From a virus, in IMG/VR virus record IMGVR_UViG_3300020437_000005, positions 1-64,000 of that record: DNA of 64,000 nucleotides; one strand, 5' to 3'. Below the pieces are notes generated by a model, which was not told the origin of the DNA, searched no databases, and saw nothing but the letters and a program-made list of their open reading frames with translations. Of the stretch, positions 38,982 to 55,533 are shown one piece after another. Numbering within the stretch: the stretch's first letter is position 1; each line of letters opens with the position of its first letter. The position numbers were made by a program, and so were the translations under genes.

Positions 38982-39166
38982 TAGACAGATCTTTTCTTGA
39001 AAAAATACCACATGAGTTAAAAGAGGCTCTTGCGGAAGATTGCGAGGATTATCTTCTACATAGAAATATACCATTGCACTCTCATTCCTATGACAACATC
39101 ATCATCCAGGCAATCAAAGAGGGATATCAAGCTAACAAGTTTGATAGACCAATCCGTTTCGATTGA
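38978..39166 (+). CDS. Small protein, unknown function
   Basis: 62 residues from the ATGA overlap: MIDRSFLEKIPHELKEALAE, then DCEDYLLHRNIPLHSHSYDNII. Acidic and predicted helical. The start is decided by the stop/start overlap rather than the longer frame from 38951. Function unknown. Confidence 0.7.
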   Translation: MIDRSFLEKIPHELKEALAEDCEDYLLHRNIPLHSHSYDNIIIQAIKEGYQANKFDRPIRFD

Positions 39167-39248
39167 ATTTTGGTCACAAGTTGCTAAGGAATCTGAACAA
39201 CTTGGAATTGATGTAGATTATTTCCTTGTGGAGTTTTATACATCATGA
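39141..39248 (+). CDS. Very small protein, start uncertain
   Basis: The frame ending at 39248 carries SIEFWSQVAKESEQLGIDVD then YFLVEFY, which looks like a genuine small cyanophage protein. It must overlap the end of the previous gene. No ATG fits well. A TTG at 39141 would give 35 residues; an ATG at 39090 would give 52 with an unlikely N terminus. Its stop overlaps the next start (ATGA), which supports the frame. Confidence 0.4.
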   Translation: MIDQSVSIEFWSQVAKESEQLGIDVDYFLVEFYTS

Positions 39249-39424
39249 CTGACCACGATAGATTGGTGAGCGCCATTCTTCGTGTGGATGAAATCGCTTC
39301 CCTGCTCCCAGATAATAACTGTCAACAGTTTTTATACTTTAAGTTATTATCAATCAAAACTGAACTTGAAAGTCAACTCAATCAGTTGACAAGAAAACAA
39401 AATCAATCTAAAATCAAGGAGTAA
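39245..39424 (+). CDS. Small helical protein, unknown function
   Basis: 59 residues: MTDHDRLVSAILRVDEIASL, then QQFLYFKLLSIKTELESQLNQL. Helical with a coiled-coil-like C-terminal half. It starts in an ATGA overlap and ends ...SKIKE with AAGGAG in its last codons, which serves the next gene. Confidence 0.7.
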   Translation: MTDHDRLVSAILRVDEIASLLPDNNCQQFLYFKLLSIKTELESQLNQLTRKQNQSKIKE

Positions 39425-39434
39425 TTTACTTAGA

Positions 39435-39677
39435 ATGATGACTCAGAAGTTTTTCTACATCGTGAATCACTTTGTCCCTTTTCCAACATCAGAATACGGT
39501 GGTATTTGGAATGTGGTAGCAGAGAACGATGACGAATGTTTTGACTTAATTGTTGAGCGAGATGAAGGATTTAATGAAGGGCATTACAATCGTCTTCGTG
39601 AAAATATCATGAAGGCACCAACATATGCACTGTCAGAAAATCTTGATTCTGAAATCGTAGAGGAGTTTACGACATGA
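39435..39677 (+). CDS. Small protein, unknown function
   Basis: 80 residues, with ATG-ATG at 39435/39438 behind AAGGAG. The sequence FFYIVNHFVPFPTSEYGG, IWNVVAENDDECFDLIVE resembles a conserved small protein of marine cyanophages, as I recall. The later half is acidic. The stop overlaps the next start (ATGA). No function known. Confidence 0.8.
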   Translation: MMTQKFFYIVNHFVPFPTSEYGGIWNVVAENDDECFDLIVERDEGFNEGHYNRLRENIMKAPTYALSENLDSEIVEEFTT

Positions 39678-39988
39678 TTGGCAAACTTGATCCTGAAGAA
39701 AATGTAATGGATTTTGATCTGATTACTACAAATCGAAGAGCAAAAGCTATTATTAGAAACATAACAGAAAAACTTACAAAGCAAATTGCAGAGTTAAATT
39801 GGGAGTGCTATGATGACGTTGTTGTTGAGGTTGGGGGTCGCTCTGTTAGTGGTATTGATGTGGGCGAAGATTACAATCCCAAGTGGTCATCACCCAAAGG
39901 AACCATCAAGAACAATAAAGACGCATTTATCGTAATCAAAAATAGAACTAGAACTCCATTTACACCATCAAAACCAAATGAAACCTGA
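39674..39988 (+). CDS. Small protein, unknown function
   Basis: 104 residues from the ATGA overlap. An N-terminal acidic helix (MIGKLDPEENVMDFDLITT) leads to RAKAIIRNITEKLTKQIAEL, a central beta segment DVVVEVGGRSVSGIDV, and a basic C terminus (KNRTRTPFTPSKPNET). It overlaps the next gene by 11 bases. No family recognised. Confidence 0.7.
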   Translation: MIGKLDPEENVMDFDLITTNRRAKAIIRNITEKLTKQIAELNWECYDDVVVEVGGRSVSGIDVGEDYNPKWSSPKGTIKNNKDAFIVIKNRTRTPFTPSKPNET

Positions 39989-40989: not shown

Positions 40990-41026
40990 AAAGTTACTCA
41001 CCTCCTGATTGTCTTATTACTGTAAT
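40990..41026 (+). promoter_or_regulatory. 37-bp repeated intergenic element, copy 1
   Basis: AAAGTTACTCACCTCC, then TGATTGTCTTATTACTGTAAT. It lies between a stop at 40977 and the start at 41037. This is the most diverged 3' half of the set. Confidence 0.85.
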
Positions 41027-41036
41027 CACACATCAC

Positions 41037-41174
41037 ATGAATTCTTATCTGACCGAACAACAAGTTGAAGAACTGGTAAACTTTGACCACATTGAAAAAG
41101 ATCTTGCTGATCTTATCGAAGATGAGGAAAAGTTTGACATCAAAGACTATCTCAACTCCAACATTGACTACTAA
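41037..41174 (+). CDS. Small acidic protein, unknown function
   Basis: 45 residues from ATG 41037: MNSYLTEQQVEELVNFDHIE, then KDLADLIEDEEKFDIKDYL. The longer frame from 40983 would run through the conserved 37-bp element and is rejected. Very acidic and predicted to be all-helical. One base before the next ATG. Confidence 0.7.
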   Translation: MNSYLTEQQVEELVNFDHIEKDLADLIEDEEKFDIKDYLNSNIDY

Positions 41175-41175
41175 A

Positions 41176-41397
41176 ATGAATTTTCCTACCGAAACTGTCA
41201 ACGTGTTACCACATCTGAATGAACTGAAAGAAACTTGGCGTCGTCAAGACTTTCGATTCACAAAAGATCAACAACTTCAATATGATATGCTACTGCAAGC
41301 ACGTCGTGAACGAGTTAGTTTCTTTTATGAAGCAGATCGTGTGTTCAAAGGTCCACGTATTGTAAAGGAGAAGGTTGAACAACAAGAAGAGGAGTGA
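41176..41397 (+). CDS. Small protein, unknown function
   Basis: 73 residues: MNFPTETVNVLPHLNELKET, WRRQDFRFTKDQQLQYDMLLQARRE, ending in EKVEQQEEE. The ATG sits one base after the preceding stop; a longer overlapping frame from 41083 is unlikely. Its final codons contain a sigma-70 promoter reading onward (41375-41403). Helical; function unknown. Confidence 0.75.
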   Translation: MNFPTETVNVLPHLNELKETWRRQDFRFTKDQQLQYDMLLQARRERVSFFYEADRVFKGPRIVKEKVEQQEEE

Positions 41398-41403
41398 TAT
41401 AAT
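41375..41403 (+). promoter_or_regulatory. Consensus sigma-70 promoter inside gene end
   Basis: TTGAAC, 17-base spacer, TATAAT. Predicted transcription start near 41410, within a short intergenic stretch that ends in a strong terminator. Confidence 0.8.
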
Positions 41404-41494
41404 ATAAACACCGGGGTTTCCACTACTCTGACCTAGAAGCAGAGACCATGAAGTGGTGTAAAAGAAGAACTTACGTTGATGCAACACCCACTCC

Positions 41495-41530
41495 AATCTC
41501 CTACTATTCTAAATAGTAGGAGATTTTTTT
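41495..41530 (+). terminator. Strong intrinsic terminator
   Basis: A perfect 13-bp stem AATCTCCTACTAT / ATAGTAGGAGATT with a 5-base loop TCTAA, followed by a T-run. It ends the short transcript from the 41375 promoter. Its loop and right arm contain CTAAATA. Confidence 0.93.
41509..41515 (+). promoter_or_regulatory. T4-type late promoter motif inside terminator hairpin
   Basis: CTAAATA spans the loop of the terminator and lies 24 bases before the ATG at 41540, the same distance as at structural genes. It would allow late transcription of the basic head-type protein while the hairpin stops upstream transcripts. Confidence 0.5.
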
Positions 41531-41539
41531 GTAGACAGA

Positions 41540-42187
41540 ATGAAGACGTTCGTGCAGTTTATGACTGAAGTATATGACAAGGATGTCATGGGTTCTTCAC
41601 AAATTCGTAAAACTGGTGGCGAAACTATTGGTAAAGATCGTAAACAACCAGCATCAATGACTCGCAGAATGAAGGCAGTTGGCGGTGGTAAGATGGAACC
41701 TGTTAAATCACCAGCAAGACGTAAAGATGCTGGACAACAGAAACCAAAATCACAAACACAACAACAACCAACAAAAGAAAGAGGCAGTGCCGAAGTTAAA
41801 CAATCATATGCGGATAAGGTAAAGGCAGAGAGAAAGAAAGCAGCACAAGCAAGAGCGGCAGCGAGAAAGTCTGGTGGTGAGGTGAAGAAAGACACCACAT
41901 CATCAAAAGAAAAAGAGTCTGCAGCAACAAAGTTATTGTCGAAGAAGTCAACCACAGTCAAGAAAGAACCATCGAGAACTAATCGTAAATGGAAACATGA
42001 GAGCGGTGGTGGTATGACAAGGAAGGAAAGAGATTCAGCAAGAAACAAAGAAAAGGGTGCTGCACTGAAAGCAAAGAAGGCAGAATTGATCAAGGGATTT
42101 ACAGATACTCATGGAAGAGCACCGAAGGGAGCAGAGAGAACTAGACTGCTGGGATTAGCACATAAGGCAGCAAAATCTGGATCATAA
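41540..42187 (+). CDS. Very basic protein with T4-like capsid-targeting N terminus (candidate internal head protein)
   Basis: 215 residues, extremely rich in Lys, Arg, Ala, Ser and Gln with almost no hydrophobic core. The N terminus MKTFVQFMTEVYD closely resembles the capsid-targeting sequence of T4 internal proteins (MKTYQEFIAEA), including a Met-Thr-Glu that fits the gp21 prohead-protease cleavage rule of hydrophobic-x-Glu. The C-terminal ~35 residues (IKGFTDTHGRAPKGAERTRL) look folded. Inferred role: packaged with the DNA, trimmed, and injected into the host. The alternative is a non-packaged DNA-binding protein; MKTF.xFM starts are common in cyanophage proteins. A late motif and strong terminator precede it. 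Confidence 0.8.
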   Translation: MKTFVQFMTEVYDKDVMGSSQIRKTGGETIGKDRKQPASMTRRMKAVGGGKMEPVKSPARRKDAGQQKPKSQTQQQPTKERGSAEVKQSYADKVKAERKKAAQARAAARKSGGEVKKDTTSSKEKESAATKLLSKKSTTVKKEPSRTNRKWKHESGGGMTRKERDSARNKEKGAALKAKKAELIKGFTDTHGRAPKGAERTRLLGLAHKAAKSGS

Positions 42188-42223
42188 AAGTTACTCACCT
42201 CTTGATCGTCTTAGTTGTACGAA
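42187..42223 (+). promoter_or_regulatory. 37-bp repeated intergenic element, copy 2
   Basis: AAAGTTACTCACCTC, then TTGATCGTCTTAGTTGTACGAA. It starts on the last base of the preceding stop codon. A separate sigma-70 promoter follows it. Confidence 0.85.
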
Positions 42224-42238
42224 CATCCTGAGAGGGTC

Positions 42239-42267
42239 TTGTAAGGCGCTCTAAGGTGTGTTATACT
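42239..42267 (+). promoter_or_regulatory. Sigma-70-type promoter of helicase gene
   Basis: TTGTAA, 17-base spacer, TATACT. Predicted start near 42274, so a GTG at 42258 inside the promoter cannot serve as start; GTG 42294 can. Confidence 0.7.
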
Positions 42268-42293
42268 GTCCACAGGTATTCATCCCCTATTTC

Positions 42294-43487
42294 GTGACTG
42301 TTACCCTTCGACCGCATCAGCAACGTGTTCTGGACCGTCTTGCAGCATATGATAAGGGTCAAGTCATTGTCCCCACAGGTGGTGGTAAAACCATCTGCAT
42401 GATTCAGGATACTATCAATCAACAGAACAACAGTCAGTCTGGTATTACCACTGTTGTTGTTGCTCCTCGTATTCTTCTTGCTGAACAACTGTGCAGTGAG
42501 TTTATGGAACTTGTTGATGGTTCTTACACTCACATCATGCACGTTCATAGTGGCGAGACACATCACTTCAGTACAACTAATCCAGAAAAGATTGCACTGT
42601 TTGCCAACTGTGCTCGTACTGCTGGTGAGAACCTGATTATCTTCACCACATATAATTCTCTTGATCGTATTCGTCAGGCAGATATTGAAGTCAACGACAT
42701 ATACTTTGACGAGGCACACAACAGTGTCAAGCGTAACTTCTTCCCTGCAACTGAACACTTCAGCAATGAATCTGATCGTTGTTACTTCTTCACTGCGACA
42801 CCAAAGCACAGTCTGACTGTATCTAAACCTGGCATGAATGATGGTTCTGTCTATGGTCAGGTGCTGGTCAATGTTCCTGCTCCTGAGTTGGTTGAGGGTG
42901 GATACATTCTTCCTCCCAAAGTTGTAGTCAAGCAGTTGCCTATGATCAAAGGTCGTAAGGTCGTATTTGCTGATGACTGTGACAATCTATTGGAGACGAT
43001 TGATGACAATAATATCAGCAAGACTCTGATCTGTGCTCGTACAACTCAACAGATCATCAACCTTATCTCTCAGTCACAGTTCTGTACTGAACTCGCTCAA
43101 CGCGGTTATTCTTGGATGACAATTACATCCAAGACTGGTGCAATCGTTGATGGTGAGAAGGTTGACCGTGAAAAGTTCTTTGATACACTGAACTCTTGGG
43201 GTCGTGATCCTGATAAGAAGTTTGTCTGCATCCATCATAGTATCCTGTCTGAGGGTATCAATGTCAATGGGTTGGAGGCAGTTGTGTTTATGCGCAACAT
43301 GGACTACATTGGTATTAGTCAGTCAATCGGTCGTGTGATACGTCTGGGAGGCGATCAGAAGACGTTTGGACTGGTTTGTGTACCAACTTACGATGCTGTT
43401 GGTATTTCCACCGCTCGCAAGGTTCAGGCAGTTGTTGATGTTGTGTTCAATCAAGGTCAACCTGCTATCTCTGAGATTCGCCGCTAA
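42294..43487 (+). CDS. SF2 DEAH-type helicase, UvsW-like
   Basis: 397 residues from GTG 42294 (MTVTLRPHQQRVLDRL). Motif Ia/Walker A is VPTGGGKT (residues 26-33), motif II DEAH at 139-142, motif III FTATP at 166-170, and motif VI QSIGRVIR near 343-350. The complete SF2 set supports an active ATP-dependent translocase. T4 UvsW remodels recombination and replication-fork intermediates and ends origin-dependent replication. This protein is much shorter than T4 UvsW (587 residues) and lacks its N-terminal domain, so it may be a minimal UvsW or a distinct helicase. The start is chosen because the upstream GTG lies within the promoter. Confidence 0.88.
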   Translation: MTVTLRPHQQRVLDRLAAYDKGQVIVPTGGGKTICMIQDTINQQNNSQSGITTVVVAPRILLAEQLCSEFMELVDGSYTHIMHVHSGETHHFSTTNPEKIALFANCARTAGENLIIFTTYNSLDRIRQADIEVNDIYFDEAHNSVKRNFFPATEHFSNESDRCYFFTATPKHSLTVSKPGMNDGSVYGQVLVNVPAPELVEGGYILPPKVVVKQLPMIKGRKVVFADDCDNLLETIDDNNISKTLICARTTQQIINLISQSQFCTELAQRGYSWMTITSKTGAIVDGEKVDREKFFDTLNSWGRDPDKKFVCIHHSILSEGINVNGLEAVVFMRNMDYIGISQSIGRVIRLGGDQKTFGLVCVPTYDAVGISTARKVQAVVDVVFNQGQPAISEIRR

Positions 43488-43489
43488 TT

Positions 43490-43526
43490 AAAGTTACTCA
43501 CCTCTTGATTGTATCAATAGTGTGAG
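43490..43526 (+). promoter_or_regulatory. 37-bp repeated intergenic element, copy 3
   Basis: AAAGTTACTCACCTC, then TTGATTGTATCAATAGTGTGAG. Two bases after the helicase stop and 32 bases before the next ATG. Confidence 0.88.
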
Positions 43527-43558
43527 GCACACATCTCACAAAGTTTTTTTTTTCCTTT

Positions 43559-44164
43559 ATGTCTAAATCAATCATCACAATGCAAGGTGCGATTGATCGC
43601 ATGAATAAGATCAAAGCATCAAGTTCAAAAAAGATTGAAGTGTATGCAAAGCGTTGCTACATTGATTTCATGAATCCTGAGATTATCAGTTGGTGGAACG
43701 ATGAGAGCAAAGACACAAATGTTGGTCGCGCTATCACTCGTCCTTTCTATGATCTGGTTCACTCCTGTTCTATTCCAACTGGACTGATTACAGAGTCTGC
43801 ATTTAAGTCTGAAAAGAAAACCAAAGATCACTGCTTCCGCCCACAATTTGTCTATCGGTTTATGTTAGACAATCACGAACAATTTGAAGACTTTTCTGTC
43901 TTTCGTGAGTGGTTTGTTATGTGCTGTTCAACTATTCTCGTCACTCCAAACGAAAATGATCGTTTGAGTAGTGAAGGAACCAAGAATCATGGTGGCGAAT
44001 ATGTTATCATGAGTCCTACAGATAAACAGTATGTTCGTGCAAATCTTGACCTCTTCACTCATAGCAATGAGCGTAGTTGGGCAAAGCGTAGTCTGACTCC
44101 AGCATCGAATGTTATCAATGCTCCCAGCGCACTTCTGGAGTATGAAAAGGTCTTCATCTCTTGA
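43559..44164 (+). CDS. 201-residue protein, unknown function
   Basis: MSKSIITMQGAIDRMNKIKA. The central part (ARAITRPF-like, then CSIPTGLITESAF, TKDHCFRPQFVYRFML, FREWFVMCCSTILVT) is well structured with conserved-looking Asp, His, Cys and Arg. I recall a related phrase (GLITExAFxxxxKTxDHxxxPQ) in other cyanophage proteins but no function. The KTKDHCFRPQ segment could be an active site of a small nuclease or other enzyme; that is a guess. Single-gene unit behind element copy 3. Confidence 0.8.
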   Translation: MSKSIITMQGAIDRMNKIKASSSKKIEVYAKRCYIDFMNPEIISWWNDESKDTNVGRAITRPFYDLVHSCSIPTGLITESAFKSEKKTKDHCFRPQFVYRFMLDNHEQFEDFSVFREWFVMCCSTILVTPNENDRLSSEGTKNHGGEYVIMSPTDKQYVRANLDLFTHSNERSWAKRSLTPASNVINAPSALLEYEKVFIS

Positions 44165-44169
44165 CTCTA

Positions 44170-44206
44170 AATGTTACTCACCTCTTAATCGTATTAGTAG
44201 TATGAA
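44170..44206 (+). promoter_or_regulatory. 37-bp repeated intergenic element, copy 4
   Basis: AATGTTACTCACCTC, then TTAATCGTATTAGTAGTATGAA. The ATG of the next gene (44202) lies inside the element, five bases before its 3' end. Confidence 0.85.
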
Positions 44207-45101
44207 GAACACTCATCTACAACATCCAGAGGACGCCATTCTCACTGGTGATCTCTCTGTTCTCGATTGGTTCGCTGCACCAGACAGTCACATCAGCACG
44301 AAAATGGATGGTGCTCCTGCTATTGTCTGGGGCACTAATCCTGCAACTGGTAACAAGTTTGTGGGAACAAAATCTGTCTTCAACAAAGTCAAAATCAAAA
44401 TCAATGAAACGCATACTGACATTGATCGGAATCATTCTGGGTCTGTTGCTGACATACTACACCATTGCCTTGATTACCTTCCTGATGTCGGTGGGATTAT
44501 TCAAGGTGATTTTATTGGGTTTGGTGGTAGTGATACTTTTTGCCCCAATACGATTACTTACACGTTCCCTGAGGTAATTCGAGAGAACATCATCATTGCT
44601 CCTCACACATATTACACTGCTGATAAAGATCTGCGTGATGCTGTTGCTCATCCCTTAAAGTTCAGAATCACTGATACGATGTATTGTAAGATCGTGCAAC
44701 CTGAGGTCAAGTTGCATCCCTACCGTGAGGATTTGTATGATATGAGTTTGTTTGCCAAGCAAATGTCCACACTATGTGAGTTTGTGGATGACAAGCAAGC
44801 AACAAAAATCAAAAAATCCATCAACGACTGCATCCGTGATGGTTATGAGGTGGACGAGAATGAAATTGCACAAAAAAACGATTGTGACATCAATCTCATT
44901 CGATTGTGGAAGTTGGTTGCAACTATGAAGGACGATCTCTTCTGGTATATCACCGAAGACGATCTGATTGACTGTAAGATTGGTGATGAAGAGTCTATGC
45001 ACGAAGGTTATGTTATCAGCAACCAATATGGTGTGTTCAAAGTTGTTGACCGACCTACATTTTCTCGTGCAAACTTCACCATTCAGAAAAGTTGGTCCTG
45101 A
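44202..45101 (+). CDS. Ligase-like covalent nucleotidyltransferase family protein
   Basis: 299 residues from ATG 44202 (MKNTHLQHPEDAILTGDLSV); a longer frame from 44109 runs through the previous gene and is rejected. Motifs in order match the DNA/RNA ligase and capping-enzyme fold: KMDG at residues 34-37 (motif I, Lys34 as the nucleotidyl lysine), IQGDFIGFG near 102 (motif III-like), EGYVI at 268-272 (motif IV), and FKVV with Lys280 (motif V). Related cyanophage proteins carry a DUF6267 label, as I recall. Substrate unknown; it could seal RNA or DNA, or use the fold for another transfer. No separate OB domain is obvious. Confidence 0.75.
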   Translation: MKNTHLQHPEDAILTGDLSVLDWFAAPDSHISTKMDGAPAIVWGTNPATGNKFVGTKSVFNKVKIKINETHTDIDRNHSGSVADILHHCLDYLPDVGGIIQGDFIGFGGSDTFCPNTITYTFPEVIRENIIIAPHTYYTADKDLRDAVAHPLKFRITDTMYCKIVQPEVKLHPYREDLYDMSLFAKQMSTLCEFVDDKQATKIKKSINDCIRDGYEVDENEIAQKNDCDINLIRLWKLVATMKDDLFWYITEDDLIDCKIGDEESMHEGYVISNQYGVFKVVDRPTFSRANFTIQKSWS

Positions 45102-45102
45102 G

Positions 45103-45139
45103 AAAGTTACTCACCTTTCGATTGTACCAGTAGTGTAAG
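45103..45139 (+). promoter_or_regulatory. 37-bp repeated intergenic element, copy 5
   Basis: AAAGTTACTCACCTT, then TCGATTGTACCAGTAGTGTAAG. One base after the preceding stop, 14 bases before the next ATG. Confidence 0.88.
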
Positions 45140-45153
45140 AACGGAGGAAACTG

Positions 45154-45486
45154 ATGCTATTTGTATCAGGAAAATCACAACACACAAAACTCACATTCAA
45201 GGTCTACGATTTCTTCCGTGAGTTGTATGATGTCAAGTCAGATGTTGAGGTGTTTCACACTGATCTGACTGATGACAATGCCTTCGGTTTTACCGAGGAG
45301 AATGGTGATGAACAATTCATTCAGATTCACAATGATCTGAGTGAGAAAGATTTTACCATCACATTGCTGCACGAACTTGTGCATGTGATGCAGAACGAAA
45401 ATGGTATCACTGATGATAAGATACGAGAAGAAGAGGCATATATGTTTGAGGACATTCTTTACAATCAGTACCTGCAATCTGTCTGA
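45154..45486 (+). CDS. Small HExxH zinc metallopeptidase-like protein
   Basis: 110 residues, with GGAGG before the ATG. The segment LLHELVHVMQ holds HExxH (His73, Glu74, His77), and DDKIREEEAY with Glu92-94 follows 15-17 residues later, a plausible third zinc ligand as in gluzincin- or SprT-like minimal peptidases. The N-terminal ~60 residues (KLTFKVYDFFRELYDV, then FIQIHNDLSEKDF) form the expected beta-sheet preceding the active helix. No signal peptide, so it acts in the cytoplasm or in the virion. Target unknown. Confidence 0.75.
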   Translation: MLFVSGKSQHTKLTFKVYDFFRELYDVKSDVEVFHTDLTDDNAFGFTEENGDEQFIQIHNDLSEKDFTITLLHELVHVMQNENGITDDKIREEEAYMFEDILYNQYLQSV

Positions 45487-45490
45487 CCCC

Positions 45491-45527
45491 AAAGTTACTC
45501 ACCTCTTGATCGTACCAGTAGTGTAAG
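45491..45527 (+). promoter_or_regulatory. 37-bp repeated intergenic element, copy 6
   Basis: AAAGTTACTCACCTC, then TTGATCGTACCAGTAGTGTAAG, close to the consensus. The similarity with copy 9 continues through GCACTCAACCA up to the next gene. Confidence 0.9.
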
Positions 45528-45537
45528 CACTCAACCA

Positions 45538-45876
45538 ATGCAAGTTACTCAAACCAAACCCCAATTCCTGACCGAAGCACTCATCGAAGTGCTCAACAAT
45601 CAGTGGAAAGTCGATGCGATCGAATCCGGTCATTCTGTTTATACTCAACTTGAGTATGAAGTTGGTCGCAAGTACATCAAAGTTTGGTCATATCTTGTTA
45701 GTGATGGTGAGAAAATGAGAGGTCGTTCTTGCTGGATGTTCGTTGACAAGAACACTGGCGAATGTTACAAACCAGCATCATACAAAGCACCTGCTAAGTA
45801 TGTCCGCTATCTGATCACTCAGTTAGCAGATAATCCTCACATTTGTGATGCCTATGGTTCGTTCTTGTATCTCTGA
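45538..45876 (+). CDS. Conserved small cyanophage protein, unknown function
   Basis: 112 residues. The core YEVGRKYIKVWSYL, then SCWMFVDKNTGECYKPASYKAPAKYVRYL resembles a protein family widespread in marine T4-like and other cyanophages (GRKYxK...FVDKxTGDxYKPASWKAPA), with no known function. First gene of a four-gene cluster behind element copy 6. No Shine-Dalgarno sequence is visible; the ATG follows CAACCA. Confidence 0.85.
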   Translation: MQVTQTKPQFLTEALIEVLNNQWKVDAIESGHSVYTQLEYEVGRKYIKVWSYLVSDGEKMRGRSCWMFVDKNTGECYKPASYKAPAKYVRYLITQLADNPHICDAYGSFLYL

Positions 45877-45929
45877 TTATGTTCTCTGACACCAATCGTC
45901 AACTCCGCAAACTTTCTATCTACAAACCC

Positions 45930-46139
45930 ATGCAATTCCAAGTCACACAAATTGAGTTTGATTTCACTGACGATGTGTTTCCTGATGAAGCACTGCCAGT
46001 AGAAGAACAAGAACTTATTGTTGCAGAAACTTGTAATACTATCTGGGAGGCATGTGATGAGGATGATCTCATCGAGGAGATCACATCTGCATCAGGTTGG
46101 TGCATCAAATCCGTTGATTATGTTCACGTTCTTAACTGA
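45930..46139 (+). CDS. Conserved small acidic cyanophage protein
   Basis: 69 residues from ATG 45930: MQFQVTQIEFDFTDD, then EEQELIVAETCNTIWEACDEDDLIEE, ITSASGWCIKSVDYVHVL. I recall a family starting MQFQVTxIEFDF in cyanophages, which favours this start over ATG 45879 (17 residues longer). Very acidic with three Cys. Function unknown. Confidence 0.78.
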   Translation: MQFQVTQIEFDFTDDVFPDEALPVEEQELIVAETCNTIWEACDEDDLIEEITSASGWCIKSVDYVHVLN

Positions 46140-46144
46140 AACTC

Positions 46145-46312
46145 ATGATTACTTCCAAAGCACAAATGCTCCGCATTATGAAACAATGCGATGGAGCAGA
46201 CACTCTCACTCGTGAACAAAAGTTTCAAGTTTTCTGCAATGTTTGCGATAACATGCTCAAATCTGGTAAAATGTCCAAAGCAACACACAAACGATTCACG
46301 GAGATCTGGTGA
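46145..46312 (+). CDS. Small protein, unknown function
   Basis: 55 residues: MITSKAQMLRIMKQCDGADT, LTREQKFQVFCNVCDNMLKSG, KMSKATHKRFTEIW. Basic and helical, with three Cys. Its stop overlaps the next ATG (TGATG), so the two are coupled. Five bases separate it from the preceding gene. Confidence 0.75.
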   Translation: MITSKAQMLRIMKQCDGADTLTREQKFQVFCNVCDNMLKSGKMSKATHKRFTEIW

Positions 46313-46521
46313 TGACTAAAGACGTTACAAACTCACCAAAAGATTGGGAGGATTTCTGGTACTCACCCGAGAAATATGGTTCTTGGGAGTATTACAACTC
46401 CGAGAGTGAGGGACGTGACGTTCCTGAGATTGATCCTGAAATCTTACGCTATGTCGATTATGTTTTGGGCAATTCTCCTTATCCACCATCATTTAAGAGA
46501 AACTCAAAACTCTCAGAATGA
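46312..46521 (+). CDS. Small acidic protein, unknown function
   Basis: 69 residues: MTKDVTNSPKDWEDFWYSPEK, then YGSWEYYNSESEGRDVPEIDPEIL. Rich in Trp, Tyr and acidic residues. The ATG overlaps the previous stop; an adjacent in-frame GTG at 46309 is the alternative. Last gene of its cluster, 9 bases before element copy 7. Confidence 0.75.
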   Translation: MTKDVTNSPKDWEDFWYSPEKYGSWEYYNSESEGRDVPEIDPEILRYVDYVLGNSPYPPSFKRNSKLSE

Positions 46522-46530
46522 CAGGTTTTC

Positions 46531-46567
46531 AAAGTTACTCACCTCTTGATTGTCCTATTAGTGTAAG
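46531..46567 (+). promoter_or_regulatory. 37-bp repeated intergenic element, copy 7
   Basis: AAAGTTACTCACCTC, then TTGATTGTCCTATTAGTGTAAG. 29 bases before the next ATG. Confidence 0.88.
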
Positions 46568-46596
46568 CACCACACCAAACCAATTCTTTTCTCATC

Positions 46597-46803
46597 ATGA
46601 CCAAGTTTCGTGAGTTTGCAACAGAAGCAATGTATTTTTGTGCTTGTTTCGGTACACTCTCTCTTGTGACTTTGTTCTGCACAGTCAACATGAATACGAG
46701 TTCCTCTATCATGAATCCTGTTGATGTTGAAACTGTATCAAATCCTTCTGATACTTCACCTGCTCGTGTTGACTATCTGACCAACATTCAAGAGGGTAAC
46801 TGA
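46597..46803 (+). CDS. Small putative membrane protein
   Basis: 68 residues. The N terminus MTKFREFATEAMYFCACFGT leads into LSLVTLFCTVNM, one hydrophobic segment (residues ~11-30) preceded by few charges, so a signal anchor or single membrane helix is likely. The remaining part is polar (NPVDVETVSNPSDTSPARVD). It begins a five-gene cluster and stops just before the next ATG. Confidence 0.72.
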   Translation: MTKFREFATEAMYFCACFGTLSLVTLFCTVNMNTSSSIMNPVDVETVSNPSDTSPARVDYLTNIQEGN

Positions 46804-46980
46804 ATGAAACCCTATCCGCTTGGAATTGACAACCCCATTCTGATTAAGCAGGTGTGGGGTTCTACTGACTGGGCATTGTATTGGAGAAAAGATCACATTA
46901 AGATCGCCACATTTTCTAATCAATTCACTGCCTACGACATGCGCCGTTCTATTCTTCGTGCTCTTGGTTACGATGCTTGA
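46804..46980 (+). CDS. Small protein, unknown function
   Basis: 58 residues: MKPYPLGIDNPILIKQVWGS, TDWALYWRKDHIKIATFSNQF. Contiguous with the preceding stop. Mixed alpha/beta and basic. It overlaps the next gene by 8 bases in another frame. No family recognised. Confidence 0.72.
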   Translation: MKPYPLGIDNPILIKQVWGSTDWALYWRKDHIKIATFSNQFTAYDMRRSILRALGYDA

Positions 46981-47137
46981 TCTCATTCTTGCCTACGAAT
47001 CTGGTGAACTTGACAATGACCAGATTGTTGAATTGTTCCAACAGATCTATGACAACAAAGCATACCTTTGGTTGCAAGGTCATTACGATCGCACACTTGC
47101 TCATCTAATTGACTCCGGTCTCATTCACATTGATTGA
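46973..47137 (+). CDS. Conserved small phage protein (ExGELDxDQ / LQGHYxRT type)
   Basis: 54 residues: MLDLILAYESGELDNDQIVE, LFQQIYDNKAYLWLQGHYDR, TLAHLIDSGLIHID. I know this pattern (YExGEL...LFQxLIDxGxxWxLQGxYxRxAxxLI) as a very common small protein in phages of diverse hosts, often near DNA metabolism genes. Function not established. It starts inside the preceding gene, which supports coupling. Confidence 0.85.
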   Translation: MLDLILAYESGELDNDQIVELFQQIYDNKAYLWLQGHYDRTLAHLIDSGLIHID

Positions 47138-47146
47138 CACAAACTC

Positions 47147-47335
47147 ATGAACTACGATGTTGACGAACGCCAAACCTCCATTGATAACATGGAGGACACA
47201 TTATTTGAAAAGATGAAGTTTGCCTTTATTCGTGAGAATGTGGGTGATGCTGAAGCGATCAAGAATGAGTGGGTTGTTGATGAAGACGACGAACCGGATA
47301 ATTTTCTCTTTGTTCCCAATCTTACACTAGACTGA
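47147..47335 (+). CDS. Small acidic protein, unknown function
   Basis: 62 residues: MNYDVDERQTSIDNMEDTLF, EKMKFAFIRENVGDAEAIKN, then EDDEPDNFLFVPNLTLD. Strongly acidic. The stop overlaps the next ATG by one base (TGATG). Function unknown. Confidence 0.75.
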   Translation: MNYDVDERQTSIDNMEDTLFEKMKFAFIRENVGDAEAIKNEWVVDEDDEPDNFLFVPNLTLD

Positions 47336-47529
47336 TGACACAACTCGACTTTGATCGTTCGATGATGGAACTTAAACTGCGTAAACAGACTCTACTGGAT
47401 GAGATCGCGCAGATCAATGCTTCTATAGAGTTTCTTCAAGAACAGAAGAATAACATCGTAGGTGAACAACAGGAGAGGACAGAAGAGATCTATAATGATA
47501 TACTGGGAGATGAGTATTTCTCAGAATAA
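47335..47529 (+). CDS. Small coiled-coil protein
   Basis: 64 residues. Most of the chain (MELKLRKQTLLDEIAQINAS then IEFLQEQKNNIVGEQQERTEE) has heptad Leu/Ile spacing and should form a coiled coil. Last gene of the cluster. A GC-rich stretch followed by seven T comes after it, but I could not draw a stable hairpin there. Confidence 0.75.
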   Translation: MTQLDFDRSMMELKLRKQTLLDEIAQINASIEFLQEQKNNIVGEQQERTEEIYNDILGDEYFSE

Positions 47530-47592
47530 TAACATAACTCTCCGAGAGTTTCCGAGATTCGAGCGACGCGAGCGCCGATTTTTTTCATTCTC

Positions 47593-47629
47593 AAAGTTAC
47601 TCACCTTCTGATTGTACCAGTTGTATGAG
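47593..47629 (+). promoter_or_regulatory. 37-bp repeated intergenic element, copy 8
   Basis: AAAGTTACTCACCTT, then CTGATTGTACCAGTTGTATGAG. An ATG (47625) lies inside it, as in copy 4. This copy sits furthest (63 bases) from the preceding stop. Confidence 0.87.
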
Positions 47630-47852
47630 AATCACTTCCACCATGGTCCCTGTCCCTGACGACATCCGCGCCGCTGCCGTTCTTGAACAGATCAAAGATT
47701 GCAAGGTTGAAGATCCCTTTGGCAACCGATACAGCATTGTCGATGTTAAGTGCTTCAACGGTAAAGTGCGATCCATTGGTCTCAAAGGCGCTGATGGTGT
47801 TGTTATGTACGCCTCGAAGAATGTCTTTCTTGAAATGACATCTATTGCTTAA
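47625..47852 (+). CDS. Small protein, unknown function
   Basis: 75 residues from ATG 47625, or 69 from ATG 47643 (MVPVPDDIRAAAVLEQIKDC). The inner ATG is attractive because the outer one lies inside element copy 8 and would be lost if that element is a promoter. The chain continues DPFGNRYSIVDVKCFNGKVRSI, a compact alpha/beta pattern. No family recognised. Confidence 0.75.
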   Translation: MRITSTMVPVPDDIRAAAVLEQIKDCKVEDPFGNRYSIVDVKCFNGKVRSIGLKGADGVVMYASKNVFLEMTSIA

Positions 47853-47855
47853 TTC

Positions 47856-48038
47856 ATGAAACTTCGTAAAATTCACATGAAAACGATTCTGATTGTGTTA
47901 GTTGGTGTGCTGGTTTGGACGAACAACGATGCACGCACATTCACTGCAAAAGCACTCTATCGTGCTGCTGAGTTTGTATCACCCGAACCTGAATCTCGTT
48001 CGATCGGTGAAACAATCGATGAAATCTTCTCTCGTTAA
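47856..48038 (+). CDS. Small protein with N-terminal signal anchor
   Basis: 60 residues. MKLRKIHMKTILIVLVGVLV has a basic start and a ~15-residue hydrophobic stretch: a signal anchor or cleavable signal peptide. An inner ATG at 47877 (MKTILIVLVGVLVW) would still encode it. The rest (TFTAKALYRAAEFVSPEPES) is polar. Likely membrane-attached. Function unknown. Confidence 0.7.
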   Translation: MKLRKIHMKTILIVLVGVLVWTNNDARTFTAKALYRAAEFVSPEPESRSIGETIDEIFSR

Positions 48039-48046
48039 TTGACATC

Positions 48047-48247
48047 ATGCAAGAAACTAAGTTCAATCTCTATGGCGAACATATCCGTCCTAATGGTCAT
48101 CAACAGTGGGACATTCTGAGTTACATTGCTGAGACAAGAGAGGATGCGATTGCTGCATGTAGGAAGAACAATCCTTACTTTCACATTATCACAATTCAGG
48201 TAGATGATACATCACCTGAAGTCGTGAGGTTGCAATCTCTGATTTGA
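48047..48247 (+). CDS. Small protein, unknown function
   Basis: 66 residues: MQETKFNLYGEHIRPNGHQQ, WDILSYIAETREDAIAACRK, then FHIITIQVDD. The alternation of strands and one helix (TREDAIAACRKNN) suggests a small ferredoxin-like fold, which is inference only. Its stop codon TGA shares its last base with element copy 9. Confidence 0.72.
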   Translation: MQETKFNLYGEHIRPNGHQQWDILSYIAETREDAIAACRKNNPYFHIITIQVDDTSPEVVRLQSLI

Positions 48248-48283
48248 AAGTTACTCACCTCCTGATCGTACCAGTAGTGTAAG
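48247..48283 (+). promoter_or_regulatory. 37-bp repeated intergenic element, copy 9
   Basis: AAAGTTACTCACCTCC, then TGATCGTACCAGTAGTGTAAG. Nine bases before the next ATG, the shortest gap of the set apart from the overlapping copies. Confidence 0.9.
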
Positions 48284-48292
48284 CACTCAACC

Positions 48293-48454
48293 ATGACAGA
48301 CCAAACCTACTCCGAAATCCTCAAAGTTTGGAACGACGAAACTCCTGACGATTTTGCAATCTTCAGTGAACTCTACTACCAAATGTTCGGTGGAGAGTTT
48401 GACATTCCTTACATCACACAGTCTACCACTTCTGCATTTTTCCCCTACGATTGA
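48293..48454 (+). CDS. Small acidic protein, unknown function
   Basis: 53 residues: MTDQTYSEILKVWNDETPDD, FAIFSELYYQMFGGEFDIPY. Acidic, aromatic-rich and helical in the first half. No Shine-Dalgarno site precedes it (CAACCATG), as with other genes directly behind the repeated element. Confidence 0.7.
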   Translation: MTDQTYSEILKVWNDETPDDFAIFSELYYQMFGGEFDIPYITQSTTSAFFPYD

Positions 48455-48472
48455 TCAACAGGAGTTAGTTTG

Positions 48473-48646
48473 ATGACTTATTCTGAACTTTTGGTGCAAC
48501 TGCTTCAACTTAATACAGAACAGTTGAGGCAAGACGTTACAGTCTATGATTCTGACACTGATGAACACTATCCTATGAAGGAGTTTGTGTATGCAACTGA
48601 TGCACAAAATGTTCTAGACACTGACCACCCTATTCTTTCTTTCTGA
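48473..48646 (+). CDS. Small protein, unknown function
   Basis: 57 residues: MTYSELLVQLLQLNTEQLRQ, DVTVYDSDTDEHYPMKEFVY. The pattern ELLxQLxxLxxEQLxxDVTVYDxxxDEHY is familiar from small phage proteins of unknown function. An AGGAG-like site (CAGGAGTT) lies 11 bases upstream. Four bases before the next gene. Confidence 0.75.
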   Translation: MTYSELLVQLLQLNTEQLRQDVTVYDSDTDEHYPMKEFVYATDAQNVLDTDHPILSF

Positions 48647-48649
48647 ACC

Positions 48650-49060
48650 ATGTCTACCAACGCAAGAATCGCAATTCAACTGTCAGACAAACCCGGTTAC
48701 TATGTCTCTGTTTATCATCACTGGGATGGTTATCCGCAGTGGTTGGGTAAGACTCTCGGACAACACTTTGACTCTCGTAAGTTAGCATCCGATCTGATTG
48801 ATGGTGGAGACATGTCATGCTGCTGGTCAGATACAGACTGGAACATGAAGAAACTCCCAACCAATCGTCCTCTCTATTATTCTGAGCGTGGTGAGGATTG
48901 CCCTCCTCAACTTGCAACCACTACAGACGATTTGTTCGAGCAATGTGAGAACTGTGGTGCAGAGTATGTTTACATCTACACTCCAGATCACGGTTGGGTA
49001 TCACACAGTGTCTATGATTATACTTCTGGCAAATTTCAATCAGCAACTCTCTCTAACTAA
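48650..49060 (+). CDS. Conserved phage protein with HWDGYP motif
   Basis: 136 residues. The N-terminal half, ARIAIQLSDKPGYYVSVYHH then WDGYPQWLGKTL and LIDGGDMSCCWSDT, matches a family seen in phages and some bacteria (...YxSxYxHWDGYPxxxGxxL...), function unknown. The C-terminal part has CENCGAEY, a possible half zinc knuckle, then YIYTPDHGWV. Likely a cytoplasmic protein. It is the longest gene in its cluster. Confidence 0.82.
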   Translation: MSTNARIAIQLSDKPGYYVSVYHHWDGYPQWLGKTLGQHFDSRKLASDLIDGGDMSCCWSDTDWNMKKLPTNRPLYYSERGEDCPPQLATTTDDLFEQCENCGAEYVYIYTPDHGWVSHSVYDYTSGKFQSATLSN

Positions 49061-49069
49061 CATTCAATC

Positions 49070-49291
49070 ATGACAACTTCCACTTTTCTCACTAACATGA
49101 ACGACGAGCAACTTGACAAACTCAAAGACAACTATGCCTACCTGATTGTGGATGGTATGGATATGGATTCTCTCATTACTTTCGCTGTCGAAACTGTTGC
49201 TCACAATTTAGAAACCTGGACAGAGGAAGAAATCAAGGAAGAGATTCTCGATCATTATGGTGAAGAAACTCTGAATGATCTTCTATCCTAA
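49070..49291 (+). CDS. Small acidic protein, unknown function
   Basis: 73 residues: MTTSTFLTNMNDEQLDKLKD, NYAYLIVDGMDMDSLITFAV, ETVAHNLETWTEEEIKEEIL. All-helical and strongly acidic. Last gene before the 343-base gene-free regulatory stretch. No family recognised. Confidence 0.75.
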   Translation: MTTSTFLTNMNDEQLDKLKDNYAYLIVDGMDMDSLITFAVETVAHNLETWTEEEIKEEILDHYGEETLNDLLS

Positions 49292-49354
49292 AATCACACA
49301 AATTTAAGTATAATCACTCACAAAAATGATTCAAAATCAATTAAAAATGGTTTA

Positions 49355-49361
49355 ATAAATA
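49355..49361 (+). promoter_or_regulatory. Late-type motif (ATAAATA) in gene-free stretch
   Basis: ATAAATA with no gene within 270 bases downstream. Possibly fortuitous in AT-rich sequence. Confidence 0.25.
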
Positions 49362-49396
49362 TACTTTCGTTTTCTATCTCTCTTGTTACTTGACAG

Positions 49397-49432
49397 TTAC
49401 TCCGTGGTTGTTTGACAGTATCTGCGGAGTAA
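49397..49432. repeat. 8-bp inverted repeat with 20-base spacer
   Basis: TTACTCCG at 49397 and CGGAGTAA at 49425. The left arm directly follows one TTGACA box and the spacer contains another, so it could be an operator or an RNA stem. Confidence 0.5.
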
Positions 49433-49557
49433 TTGCACTGATAAATGTACGAACTTATAGTGATCTTGGACCTCATTCTATCACCACTCCGCGAAAATGT
49501 CAAGTCCCCCGCAATCAGAAATCCCACACAAAACACTTCGTAATATAAGGAGGACTC

Positions 49558-49564
49558 ATAAATA
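49558..49564 (+). promoter_or_regulatory. T4-type late promoter motif (ATAAATA)
   Basis: ATAAATA lies 70 bases before the start at 49635 and just before a sigma-70 promoter for the same gene. Confidence 0.35.
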
Positions 49565-49576
49565 GTCTGCGGTAGA

Positions 49577-49605
49577 TTGACAGATTCTCTCTGACGATCT
49601 ATAAT
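49577..49605 (+). promoter_or_regulatory. Perfect sigma-70 promoter
   Basis: TTGACA, 17-base spacer, TATAAT: both hexamers match the consensus exactly. Transcription should start near 49612, giving a leader of about 23 bases to the gene at 49635. Confidence 0.92.
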
Positions 49606-49634
49606 AACAAAGTAACACTCCCACCCTTCCAACC

Positions 49635-49808
49635 ATGCCTGCTATCTATCACCAAGCACAGAAGAGTAAGTATCGCATCACCCTGGAAATCGAAGCAATG
49701 AGTGACTTCGACCCGCATAATATCAACTGGGATCGATTGTTTAAGTTGGAAGGTTCGGAGAATTGTGATGCTTATATAGAGGACCTGAGTACACCTGACC
49801 GTTGGTAA
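49635..49808 (+). CDS. Small protein, unknown function
   Basis: 57 residues: MPAIYHQAQKSKYRITLEIE, AMSDFDPHNINWDRLFKLEG, SENCDAYIEDLSTPDRW. This is the first gene behind a perfect host promoter and so probably among the earliest and most strongly expressed. The YRITLEIEAMSDFDPHNINW phrase is reminiscent of small cyanophage proteins; no function known. Confidence 0.75.
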   Translation: MPAIYHQAQKSKYRITLEIEAMSDFDPHNINWDRLFKLEGSENCDAYIEDLSTPDRW

Positions 49809-49821
49809 TCGCAGTCGCTTT

Positions 49822-49858
49822 AAAGTTACTCACCTCTTGATCGTACCAGTGGTGTAAG
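49822..49858 (+). promoter_or_regulatory. 37-bp repeated intergenic element, copy 10
   Basis: AAAGTTACTCACCTC, then TTGATCGTACCAGTGGTGTAAG. 22 bases before the next ATG. Confidence 0.9.
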
Positions 49859-49880: not shown

Positions 49881-50054
49881 ATGCTCACCCGATCTGATCT
49901 TCTCACCGTTCGCGACTACTTCTCCGGAGATGAGTGGGACCTGATTGATGCTGCTCTCAGTGAGTATCAGGACCATTTTGACACTGATGAAGATGCAATC
50001 GTGTTCAACACATTGCAATCGAAACTCGCAGGATTGTTCCGTATTGTAGACTGA
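49881..50054 (+). CDS. Small acidic protein, unknown function
   Basis: 57 residues: MLTRSDLLTVRDYFSGDEWD, LIDAALSEYQDHFDTDEDAI, then LQSKLAGLFRIVD. Acidic and helical. It stands behind element copy 10 and is followed 42 bases later by the next gene. No domain recognised. Confidence 0.72.
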   Translation: MLTRSDLLTVRDYFSGDEWDLIDAALSEYQDHFDTDEDAIVFNTLQSKLAGLFRIVD

Positions 50055-51250: not shown

Positions 51251-52027
51251 ATGGCTAAAGGATTTACTGTTAAGGCAAATGCCCCCACAGCGCCTAAAGA
51301 GGAAGAGTGGGACTATGACGCGATTAAAGAGCGTATGAAAGGGAAGACGATTGTATTCTGTCTTCCAGGAAGAGGATGTTCGTATACCTTTCTAAAAAAC
51401 TTTGTACAGATGTGTTTTGATCTGGTACAGAATGGAATGGCTATTCAGATCAGTCAAGACTATTCATCCATGGTGAACTTCGCACGTTGTAAGTGTTTAG
51501 GTGCAAATGTTCTCCGTGGTCCTAATCAAGCACCATGGGACGGTAAACTGCAGTATGACTATCAACTGTGGATTGACAGTGATATTGTCTTTAACTCTCA
51601 GAAGTTCTGGCAACTTTGTGATCTTGCAGTTCCTGCTGAAGGTGAAGAACGTGATATCACCGCTGGTTGGTATTGCACAGAAGACGGTCAAACATCTTCT
51701 GTTGCACACTGGTTGGACGAAGAAGACTTCCGTGGTAATGGTGGTGTCATGAATCATGAAACACTGGAAACCATGGCAAATCGTCAGAAACCATTCACTG
51801 TAGATTACACAGGCTTTGGATGGGTCATGATTAAGAATGGCGTATTTGAGAATGACAAAATGGTTTATCCATGGTTTGCGCCTAAAATGCAGGTATTTGA
51901 AAGTGGTGAAGTTCAAGACATGTGCGGCGAGGATGTCTCATTCTGTCTAGATGCAAAAGAAGCAGGTTATGAAATCTGGTGCGACCCACGCATTCGTGTC
52001 GGTCATGAAAAGACTCGTGTAATTTGA
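51251..52027 (+). CDS. GT-A-type glycosyltransferase-like protein
   Basis: 258 residues. KTIVFCLPGRGCSYTFLKNF begins a nucleotide-sugar-binding Rossmann-like region. LWIDSDIVF carries a DxD motif (Asp109-Ser-Asp111), the metal/NDP-sugar site of GT-A enzymes. CGEDVSFCLDAKEAGYEIWC and RVGHEK (residues ~225-255) match the acceptor- and metal-side motifs of such enzymes (E/D-D and a late His). Related proteins are frequent in T4-like cyanophages. Substrate unknown: phage DNA, host surface glycans or a virion protein are all possible. It has its own perfect host promoter, suggesting early action in the host. Confidence 0.82.
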   Translation: MAKGFTVKANAPTAPKEEEWDYDAIKERMKGKTIVFCLPGRGCSYTFLKNFVQMCFDLVQNGMAIQISQDYSSMVNFARCKCLGANVLRGPNQAPWDGKLQYDYQLWIDSDIVFNSQKFWQLCDLAVPAEGEERDITAGWYCTEDGQTSSVAHWLDEEDFRGNGGVMNHETLETMANRQKPFTVDYTGFGWVMIKNGVFENDKMVYPWFAPKMQVFESGEVQDMCGEDVSFCLDAKEAGYEIWCDPRIRVGHEKTRVI

Positions 52028-55514: not shown

Positions 55515-55533
55515 AGACGGATAGATAAAAAAT

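What the first reader, a model, noticed from the sequence alone, without database searches (positions are those of the whole stretch)
40990..49858. Ten copies of one 37-bp intergenic element head ten gene units
Copies start at 40990, 42187, 43490, 44170, 45103, 45491, 46531, 47593, 48247 and 49822. All ten share GTTACTCACCT, and most continue to the consensus TTGATCGTACCAG with a TAGTGTAAG-type end. They lie only between genes, usually 0-15 bases after a stop and 9-33 bases before the next ATG; copies 4 and 8 contain an ATG, and a separate promoter follows copy 2. TTACTC and TAGTGT/TAGTAT/TTGTAT are 18 bases apart, so the element may be a promoter with weak hexamers plus a conserved activator site, perhaps a phage middle promoter that is not MotA-type. 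The genes behind it (helicase, ligase-like, zincin and many small proteins) would form one regulon. Identical heads could also act as recombination sites for cassette exchange, as proposed for promoter stem-loops in T4 phages.
Basis: partly seen in the sequence, partly recalled or inferred. Interest (0 to 1): 0.78.

Follow-up and report, generated by a model that had tools for sequence, protein, structure and literature searches.

The report
Cyanophage promoter family with phage-specific box
The ten repeats are real and are most likely start signals for reading a block of small genes in a virus of marine cyanobacteria; hundreds of related viruses carry the same signal, but each virus has its own private 8-letter "address", changed in step in all its copies, which points to an unknown viral protein that reads it.

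Summary
Observation confirmed: ten copies, one strand, none elsewhere in the 82-kb record. They belong to a large, phage-only element family (>1,700 copies in >250 uncultured contigs, plus SynMITS9220M01, S-SM2, S-B43), always on the gene strand, in one 10-20 kb cluster of small genes. The element is bipartite: the 3' module (YAAASTGTCCYNRTAGTRTRA) is constant; the 5' box (GTTACTCACC here) is nearly uniform within a phage but differs between phages (34 boxes in one scan). A relative 89-94% identical to the window has the same C->G change in all nine copies while keeping copy-specific 3' differences, so the box behaves like a code read by one phage-specific factor. Best model: a promoter starting at the conserved purine of TAGT|R, giving leaderless mRNAs or leaders of at least 14 nt. 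Start site and factor are inferred. Syn9 and ten other checked cyanophages lack it.

The parts
40990..41026 (+). element copy 1; predicted start purine 41022; heads small gene 41037-41174
   Evidence: ortholog in L149 carries the AGCT box
42187..42223 (+). element copy 2; upstream of the helicase gene (42258-43487), with a separate sigma-70-like promoter at 42239-42267 between
43490..43526 (+). element copy 3; heads gene 43559-44164; whole unit replaced in relative L149
44170..44206 (+). element copy 4, ATG inside (44202): start codon of DUF6267 gene 44202-45101
   Evidence: same start in many relatives and in SynMITS9220M01
45103..45139 (+). element copy 5; heads M78/DUF6782-like metallopeptidase gene 45154-45486
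45491..45527 (+). element copy 6; heads DUF7717 gene 45538-45876 and following small genes
46531..46567 (+). element copy 7; heads gene 46597-46803 and following small genes
47593..47629 (+). element copy 8, ATG inside (47625): gene 47625-47852
48247..48283 (+). element copy 9; heads gene 48293-48454 and following small genes
   Evidence: ortholog in L005
49822..49858 (+). element copy 10; heads gene 49881-50054
   Evidence: ortholog in L005

Best explanation
Each copy is a phage promoter for the unit behind it. Its 3' module (idx 15-35, YAAASTGTCCYNRTAGTRTRA) is the constant part where RNA polymerase melts DNA and starts RNA at the invariant purine of TAGT|R (idx 32). Its 5' box (idx 3-12, GTTACTCACC in this phage) is a specificity code read by a phage-encoded factor that differs between phages. 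Where the start purine is the A of ATG the mRNA is leaderless; otherwise it has a leader of at least 14 nt, A/C-rich and mostly without Shine-Dalgarno. The copies together form one regulon, the small-gene (probable host-takeover) cluster before gp25. Shown: sequence, distribution, strand, frame use, coordinated box switching. Inferred: promoter function, start site, the existence of the factor and the timing.
For: Only on the gene strand: 0 of 95 contigs and 0 of 200 independent loci have both strands; 0 hits in 1.19 Mb shuffled. Confined to one cluster: 36.3-50.0 kb of 190 kb in SynMITS9220M01, 42.7-58.5 kb of 191 kb in S-SM2, single 12-17 kb blocks in 222-, 112-, 98- and 92-kb contigs. Box uniform within and different between phages: Fst 0.83-1.0 at idx 4-11, about 0 in flanks; 34 boxes in an unbiased scan, on average 87% of copies in a locus sharing one. 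Natural experiment: L149, 89-94% identical to the window, has GTTACTCAGCT in all nine copies, while copy-specific 3' ends are kept, which whole-element conversion would not do. Start-codon histogram: 311 at idx 32, 13 at 33-45, 339 at 46-56 of 749; replicated 392/16/294 of 844. GTG at idx 32 is open in only 17%. Terminators (dG -12 to -15.5 kcal/mol) up to 35 nt upstream of 15/311 ATG-containing copies, and DUF6267 has no later usable Met. Purine at idx 32 in 99-100%. No RNA structure (z +0.37).
Against: No transcript data. No sequence in the right place resembles a sigma-70 -10 if the start is idx 32 (idx 20-25 is TGTCCY). No cognate factor found: no sigma region 4 in element-bearing phages, no box-restricted protein family in the cluster, and the candidates tested occur in phages without the element. 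Terminator examples come mostly from one gene (DUF6267), and tandem units could be reached by read-through. Some G-rich boxes are not uniform within a contig.
Confidence: 0.62

Rival explanations
1. One reading: host sigma-70 RNA polymerase uses TAGTRT as a -10, the box at -35 binds a phage activator, and RNA starts 5-8 nt downstream (idx 38-42). ATG-containing copies rely on read-through from upstream promoters.
For: Box and TAGTRT are spaced like -35 and -10 in all phages; T, A and the final T of TAGTRT are highly conserved; sigma-70 recognition would explain why this part is the same in all phages.
Against: About 40% of copies would cut the start codon off their own transcript, yet that ATG is in frame in 94-95%. 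If read-through sufficed, ATGs at idx 33-45 should be as common as at 32. Terminators abut some of these copies. The hexamers do not score as sigma-70.
Confidence: 0.22
2. The element acts in RNA: a processing or translation-initiation site in long early transcripts, cut or bound by a phage-specific protein that reads the box.
For: Strand-specific, next to start codons, phage-specific code with fixed spacing to the ATG; a cut at idx 31/32 would give the same start-codon histogram.
Against: No structure (z +0.37), no Rfam match above gathering. Terminators just upstream would keep some elements out of the RNA. Start codons at a variable 46-56+ distance do not fit a direct ribosome site.
Confidence: 0.1
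3. Repeats are recombination sites or homologous ends for exchange of gene cassettes; uniformity comes from gene conversion.
For: One unit between helicase and DUF6267 differs completely between window and L149, with one boundary exactly at an element; the same gene families sit behind different boxes.
Against: All nine boxes differ by the same C->G in L149 without transfer of neighbouring copy-specific bases; conservation is sharp at the start purine and start codon, which recombination does not need.
Confidence: 0.05

Closest known systems
Syn9 early-gene regulatory element (Doron et al. 2016, PMID 26623542; abstract known from memory, paper not held)
   Same: Repeated intergenic element in the same small-gene cluster of a T4-like cyanophage, reported as a non-T4 early control element.
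   Different: Syn9 has no copy of this family; its iterated motif in that cluster is TCGTGTATTCTATAAGAGTCAAAGG, shared in part with Bellamy, S-SCSM1 and Sf-CH8. That this is Doron's element is my inference.
T7-group single-subunit RNA polymerase promoters
   Same: About ten or more copies per genome with a constant initiation part and a phage-specific recognition part that co-evolves with its reader (general knowledge).
   Different: Longer (about 36 bp), -4..-1 is TAGT, start not G-rich; no phage-type RNA polymerase found, though the search had no positive control.
T4 middle (MotA/AsiA) promoters
   Same: A phage activator box in the place of the -35 with a -10-like block downstream.
   Different: No MotA box; no MotA domains found; marine T4-like cyanophages are reported to lack T4-like middle promoters and motA/asiA (PMC5780444).
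PeSL promoter-terminator cassettes of T4-like phages (Arbiol 2010; Comeau 2014, cited in PMC4503421)
   Same: Some copies directly follow an intrinsic terminator and bound an exchanged unit.
   Different: No sigma-70 early promoter; only about 2% of copies have a terminator just upstream.
phiKZ nvRNAP TATG promoters
   Same: Start site at a TATG (PMC5312081).
   Different: phiKZ motif is only TATG and read by a phage multisubunit polymerase; here a 36-bp element with a variable box, and in kyanoviruses no such polymerase is known to me.
Halovirus HF2 intergenic repeats that carry promoters (PMC8707807)
   Same: Iterated intergenic repeats before genes, cloned in front of a reporter and found to carry promoters (title and abstract).
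   Different: Archaeal virus with AT-rich motifs; no specificity switching is mentioned in the abstract.

Membership tests
Bacterial sigma-70 promoter | TTGACA, 16-18 nt, TATAAT-like hexamers | tested here: not met
   None of the ten copies is among 23 scan hits (20.8 expected in shuffles)
T4 middle promoter | MotA box (TTTGCTT-like) about 12 nt before TATAAT | tested here: not met
   Boxes are GTTACTCACC, ACTGNNGCC, GGGGGGAC etc.
T4 middle promoter | phage encodes MotA | tested here: inconclusive
   No PF09114/PF09158 match in eight element-bearing records, without a phage positive control
T4 late promoter | TATAAATA -10 in front of structural genes | tested here: not met
   Constant block is TAGTRT; copies confined to the small-gene cluster
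Syn9-type early element | same sequence motif as in Syn9 | tested here: not met
   No copies in Syn9, nor in regions of Bellamy, S-SKS1, S-SRM01, P-SSM2, S-T4, S-SCSM1, S-CAM7, Sf-CH8, S-MbCM25, S-N03 (whole genome for Syn9 only)
Syn9-type early element | drives early transcription | not testable with these tools
   Same genomic cluster, no expression data
Promoter read by alternative sigma factor | phage encodes a sigma with region 4 | tested here: not met
   No Sigma70_r4 in M01, S-SM2, S-B43 or four long contigs; S-N03 is a positive hit in the same search; region 2 matches at the gp55 late factor
T7-type promoter | phage encodes single-subunit RNA polymerase | tested here: inconclusive
   No PF00940 match in eight records; no control rang
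PeSL | stem-loop terminator joined to a sigma-70 early promoter | tested here: not met
   18 of 747 copies have a terminator close upstream; no sigma-70 promoter
Structured RNA element | conserved fold or Rfam family | tested here: not met
   Mean fold z +0.37; no Rfam match above gathering
Leaderless-mRNA promoter | transcript starts at the A of AUG | not testable with these tools
   Indirect support only: start-codon histogram, AUG-only use, terminators

The most novel reading that the evidence does not exclude
A superfamily of cyanophage promoters in which a constant start module is combined with a rapidly switching 8-bp address, more than 34 versions among related phages, each read by a matching, still unknown phage-encoded specificity factor and producing many leaderless mRNAs; switching would keep co-infecting phages, or host repressors, from using or blocking each other's takeover genes.
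Probability: 0.35. Interest if true: 0.85.

Novelty: new variant of a known kind. Interest (0 to 1): 0.7.

Why it matters
T4-like cyanophages are among the most abundant ocean viruses, lack MotA/AsiA, and how they direct RNA polymerase to their takeover genes is largely open. This family gives a sequence-defined regulon of about 8-16 promoters per phage, a predicted start base, and sets of near-identical phages that differ in one code letter, so that the reader of the code can be sought by genetics and biochemistry. A promoter family whose specificity half has been replaced in concert dozens of times, as T7-type promoters do with their polymerase, would be a fresh case of regulator-site co-evolution. 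The 3' module is also a handy marker for annotating small phage genes and their true start codons.

Tried and rejected
Complementarity of GTTACTCACC to the conserved 16S rRNA stretch GGTGAGTAAC, and identity of CACCTCC to the anti-Shine-Dalgarno: noticed from memory, rejected because most boxes in the family lack either. Similarity of CTATAG to T7/SP6 promoters: not kept, TATAG is not conserved. Trans factor search: proteins shared by M01, S-SM2 and S-B43 but not Syn9 gave a 258-aa glycosyltransferase-like protein (window 51251-52027) and M01_041; both occur widely in phages without the element. Co-variation of cluster proteins with box type in 136 sources: no family stands out. Sigma factor with region 4: none. 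Host origin: three scattered matches in 257 Gb of bacterial genomes, chance. RNA structure and Rfam: negative. Literature: Doron 2016 not held; no held paper found that describes this element. Short-query BLAST of the window version found only one weak isolate hit; the generalised consensus found SynMITS9220M01, the S-B43 group and S-SM2.

Full report
Observation. The whole 82-kb IMG/VR record has the same ten, none reversed. They lie between genes in the 8.9-kb stretch of small genes that precedes the gp25/gp6 genes, with a helicase, a DUF6267 protein and an M78-like metallopeptidase among the genes they head (gp25 and gp6 by homology to SynMITS9220M01). Small corrections to the spacing claims are in the observation check.

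It is one member of a large family. A weight matrix found 445 hits in 95 contigs, never on both strands of one contig and none in 1.19 Mb of shuffled sequence. Complete isolate genomes confirm a single cluster: 12 copies in SynMITS9220M01, all + strand, 36.3-50.0 kb; 11 in S-SM2, 42.7-58.5 kb; 8 in S-B43, all on one strand but in two blocks of that record. Four long uncultured contigs show one single block each. Bacterial genomes hold only three scattered matches in 257 Gb.

The element is bipartite. S-SM2 carries AAGGGGGGTCGCCTAAAGCGTCCCTATAGTATGAGCA: same right half, different left box. Upstream of the DUF6267 gene of 80 phages the right half is constant in most and the left box takes many forms, and each contig uses one box in its copies. 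An unbiased scan by the right half gave 200 further loci, 1,028 elements, no locus with both strands, and 34 boxes among 158 loci with at least three copies. Between-phage differentiation per position is 0.83-1.0 at idx 4-11, 0.8-0.96 at idx 20-22, low over TAGTRTRA because it is the same everywhere, and about zero in the flanks.

Coordinated switching. Contig L149 is 89-94% identical to the window in DNA over about 12 kb. All nine of its copies read GTTACTCAGCT where all window copies read GTTACTCACCT, while copy-specific features of the right half, such as TTACTGTAAT in copy 1, are kept. Independent drift cannot do this, and conversion would need very short tracts in nine places. Selection by one common reader is the simplest explanation. 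The same gene families stand behind different boxes, so the box belongs to the phage and not to the gene.

Where transcription starts. In copies ending TAGTATG, the frame from that ATG is open for 50 or more codons in 95% (154 copies) and 94% (407 copies, second set), against 24-32% when the triplet is GTA or ATA, and 17% when it is GTG. So the internal AUG, and only AUG, is a start codon. Start codons over 749 elements fall at idx 32 (311), almost never at 33-45 (13), and again at 46-56 (339); in the second set 392, 16 and 294 of 844. Read-through transcription would allow ATGs at 33-45 as well as at 32, so position 32 is special. In 15 of 311 such copies an intrinsic terminator ends within 35 nt upstream, e.g. 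GAGAGAGGGGCAACCCTCTCTTTTTTT in L187, dG -15.5 kcal/mol, and DUF6267 has no other usable start before its KMDG motif. Idx 32 is a purine in 99-100%, after an almost invariant T. The simplest reading is initiation at idx 32, with leaderless mRNAs in about 40% of copies and leaders of at least 14 nt, A/C-rich and nearly free of Shine-Dalgarno, in the rest. This is inference; starts at 27-31 are not excluded.

What reads it. No copy looks like a sigma-70 promoter. No sigma region 4 protein is present in element-bearing phages, while S-N03, in whose cluster the element was not found, has one; the region 2 matches are the gp55 late factor. MotA and phage-type RNA polymerase domains were not found, without good positive controls. 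Protein candidates from the phyletic pattern and the co-variation test failed. The factor is therefore unidentified and could be virion-delivered or made from another promoter.

Comparison with the known. Syn9 and regions of ten other cyanophages lack this family. Several of them share another iterated motif, CTATAAGAGTCAAAGG, in the same cluster, which may be the novel early element of Doron et al. 2016; I know that abstract from memory and could not read the paper. PMC5780444 states that marine T4-like cyanophages lack T4-like middle promoters and motA/asiA. The closest working analogy is the T7 group, where a constant start region is combined with a polymerase-specific recognition region. 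I therefore file it as a new variant of a known kind, iterated phage promoters, with two unusual traits: the switching box and the start codon built into the start site.

Noticed in passing
window 41375-41526 +: TTGAAC-17-TATAAT (with TG) promoter-like site followed about 90 nt later by a 14-bp hairpin and T run: looks like a small non-coding RNA gene between two element-headed units.
   Followed up: no
window 49577-49605 +: Perfect 12/12 sigma-70 consensus promoter before gene 49635-49808, with a divergent 11/12 one at 49503-49475; contrasts with the non-sigma elements around it.
   Followed up: no
MT162466 (S-N03), 39012-39776 -; L236 2690-3454: This cyanophage, in whose cluster the element was not found, encodes a sigma-70-family protein with regions 2 and 4 in the equivalent small-gene cluster and has its own iterated TGCCATACTA / AAGCAAAGGA motifs.
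   Followed up: partly
L143-L146 (Syn9), L227, L232, L234: Syn9, Bellamy, S-SCSM1 and Sf-CH8 share an iterated (CTATA)AGAGTCAAAGG; S-CAM7 has TCCATAGAG (16 copies), P-SSM2 AACTGGCACAC, S-SRM01 TCTCGACGAG: each lineage seems to have its own early-cluster element.
   Followed up: partly
window 43489-44170 versus L149 3685-6969: One whole unit is replaced between two phages about 90% identical elsewhere, with the right boundary exactly at an element.
   Followed up: partly
window 11732-28420 and 55514-64000: A 5,562-aa open frame, and about 8 kb with no listed long ORF at the right end, probably a giant gene running off the window.
   Followed up: no
MN018232 (S-B43) 54-56 kb and 201-209 kb: Elements and cluster genes lie in two distant blocks, suggesting a rearranged or misassembled genome record.
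   Followed up: no
window 44202-45101: DUF6267 protein has an N-terminal KMDG like the adenylation motif of ligases; family function unknown.
   Followed up: no
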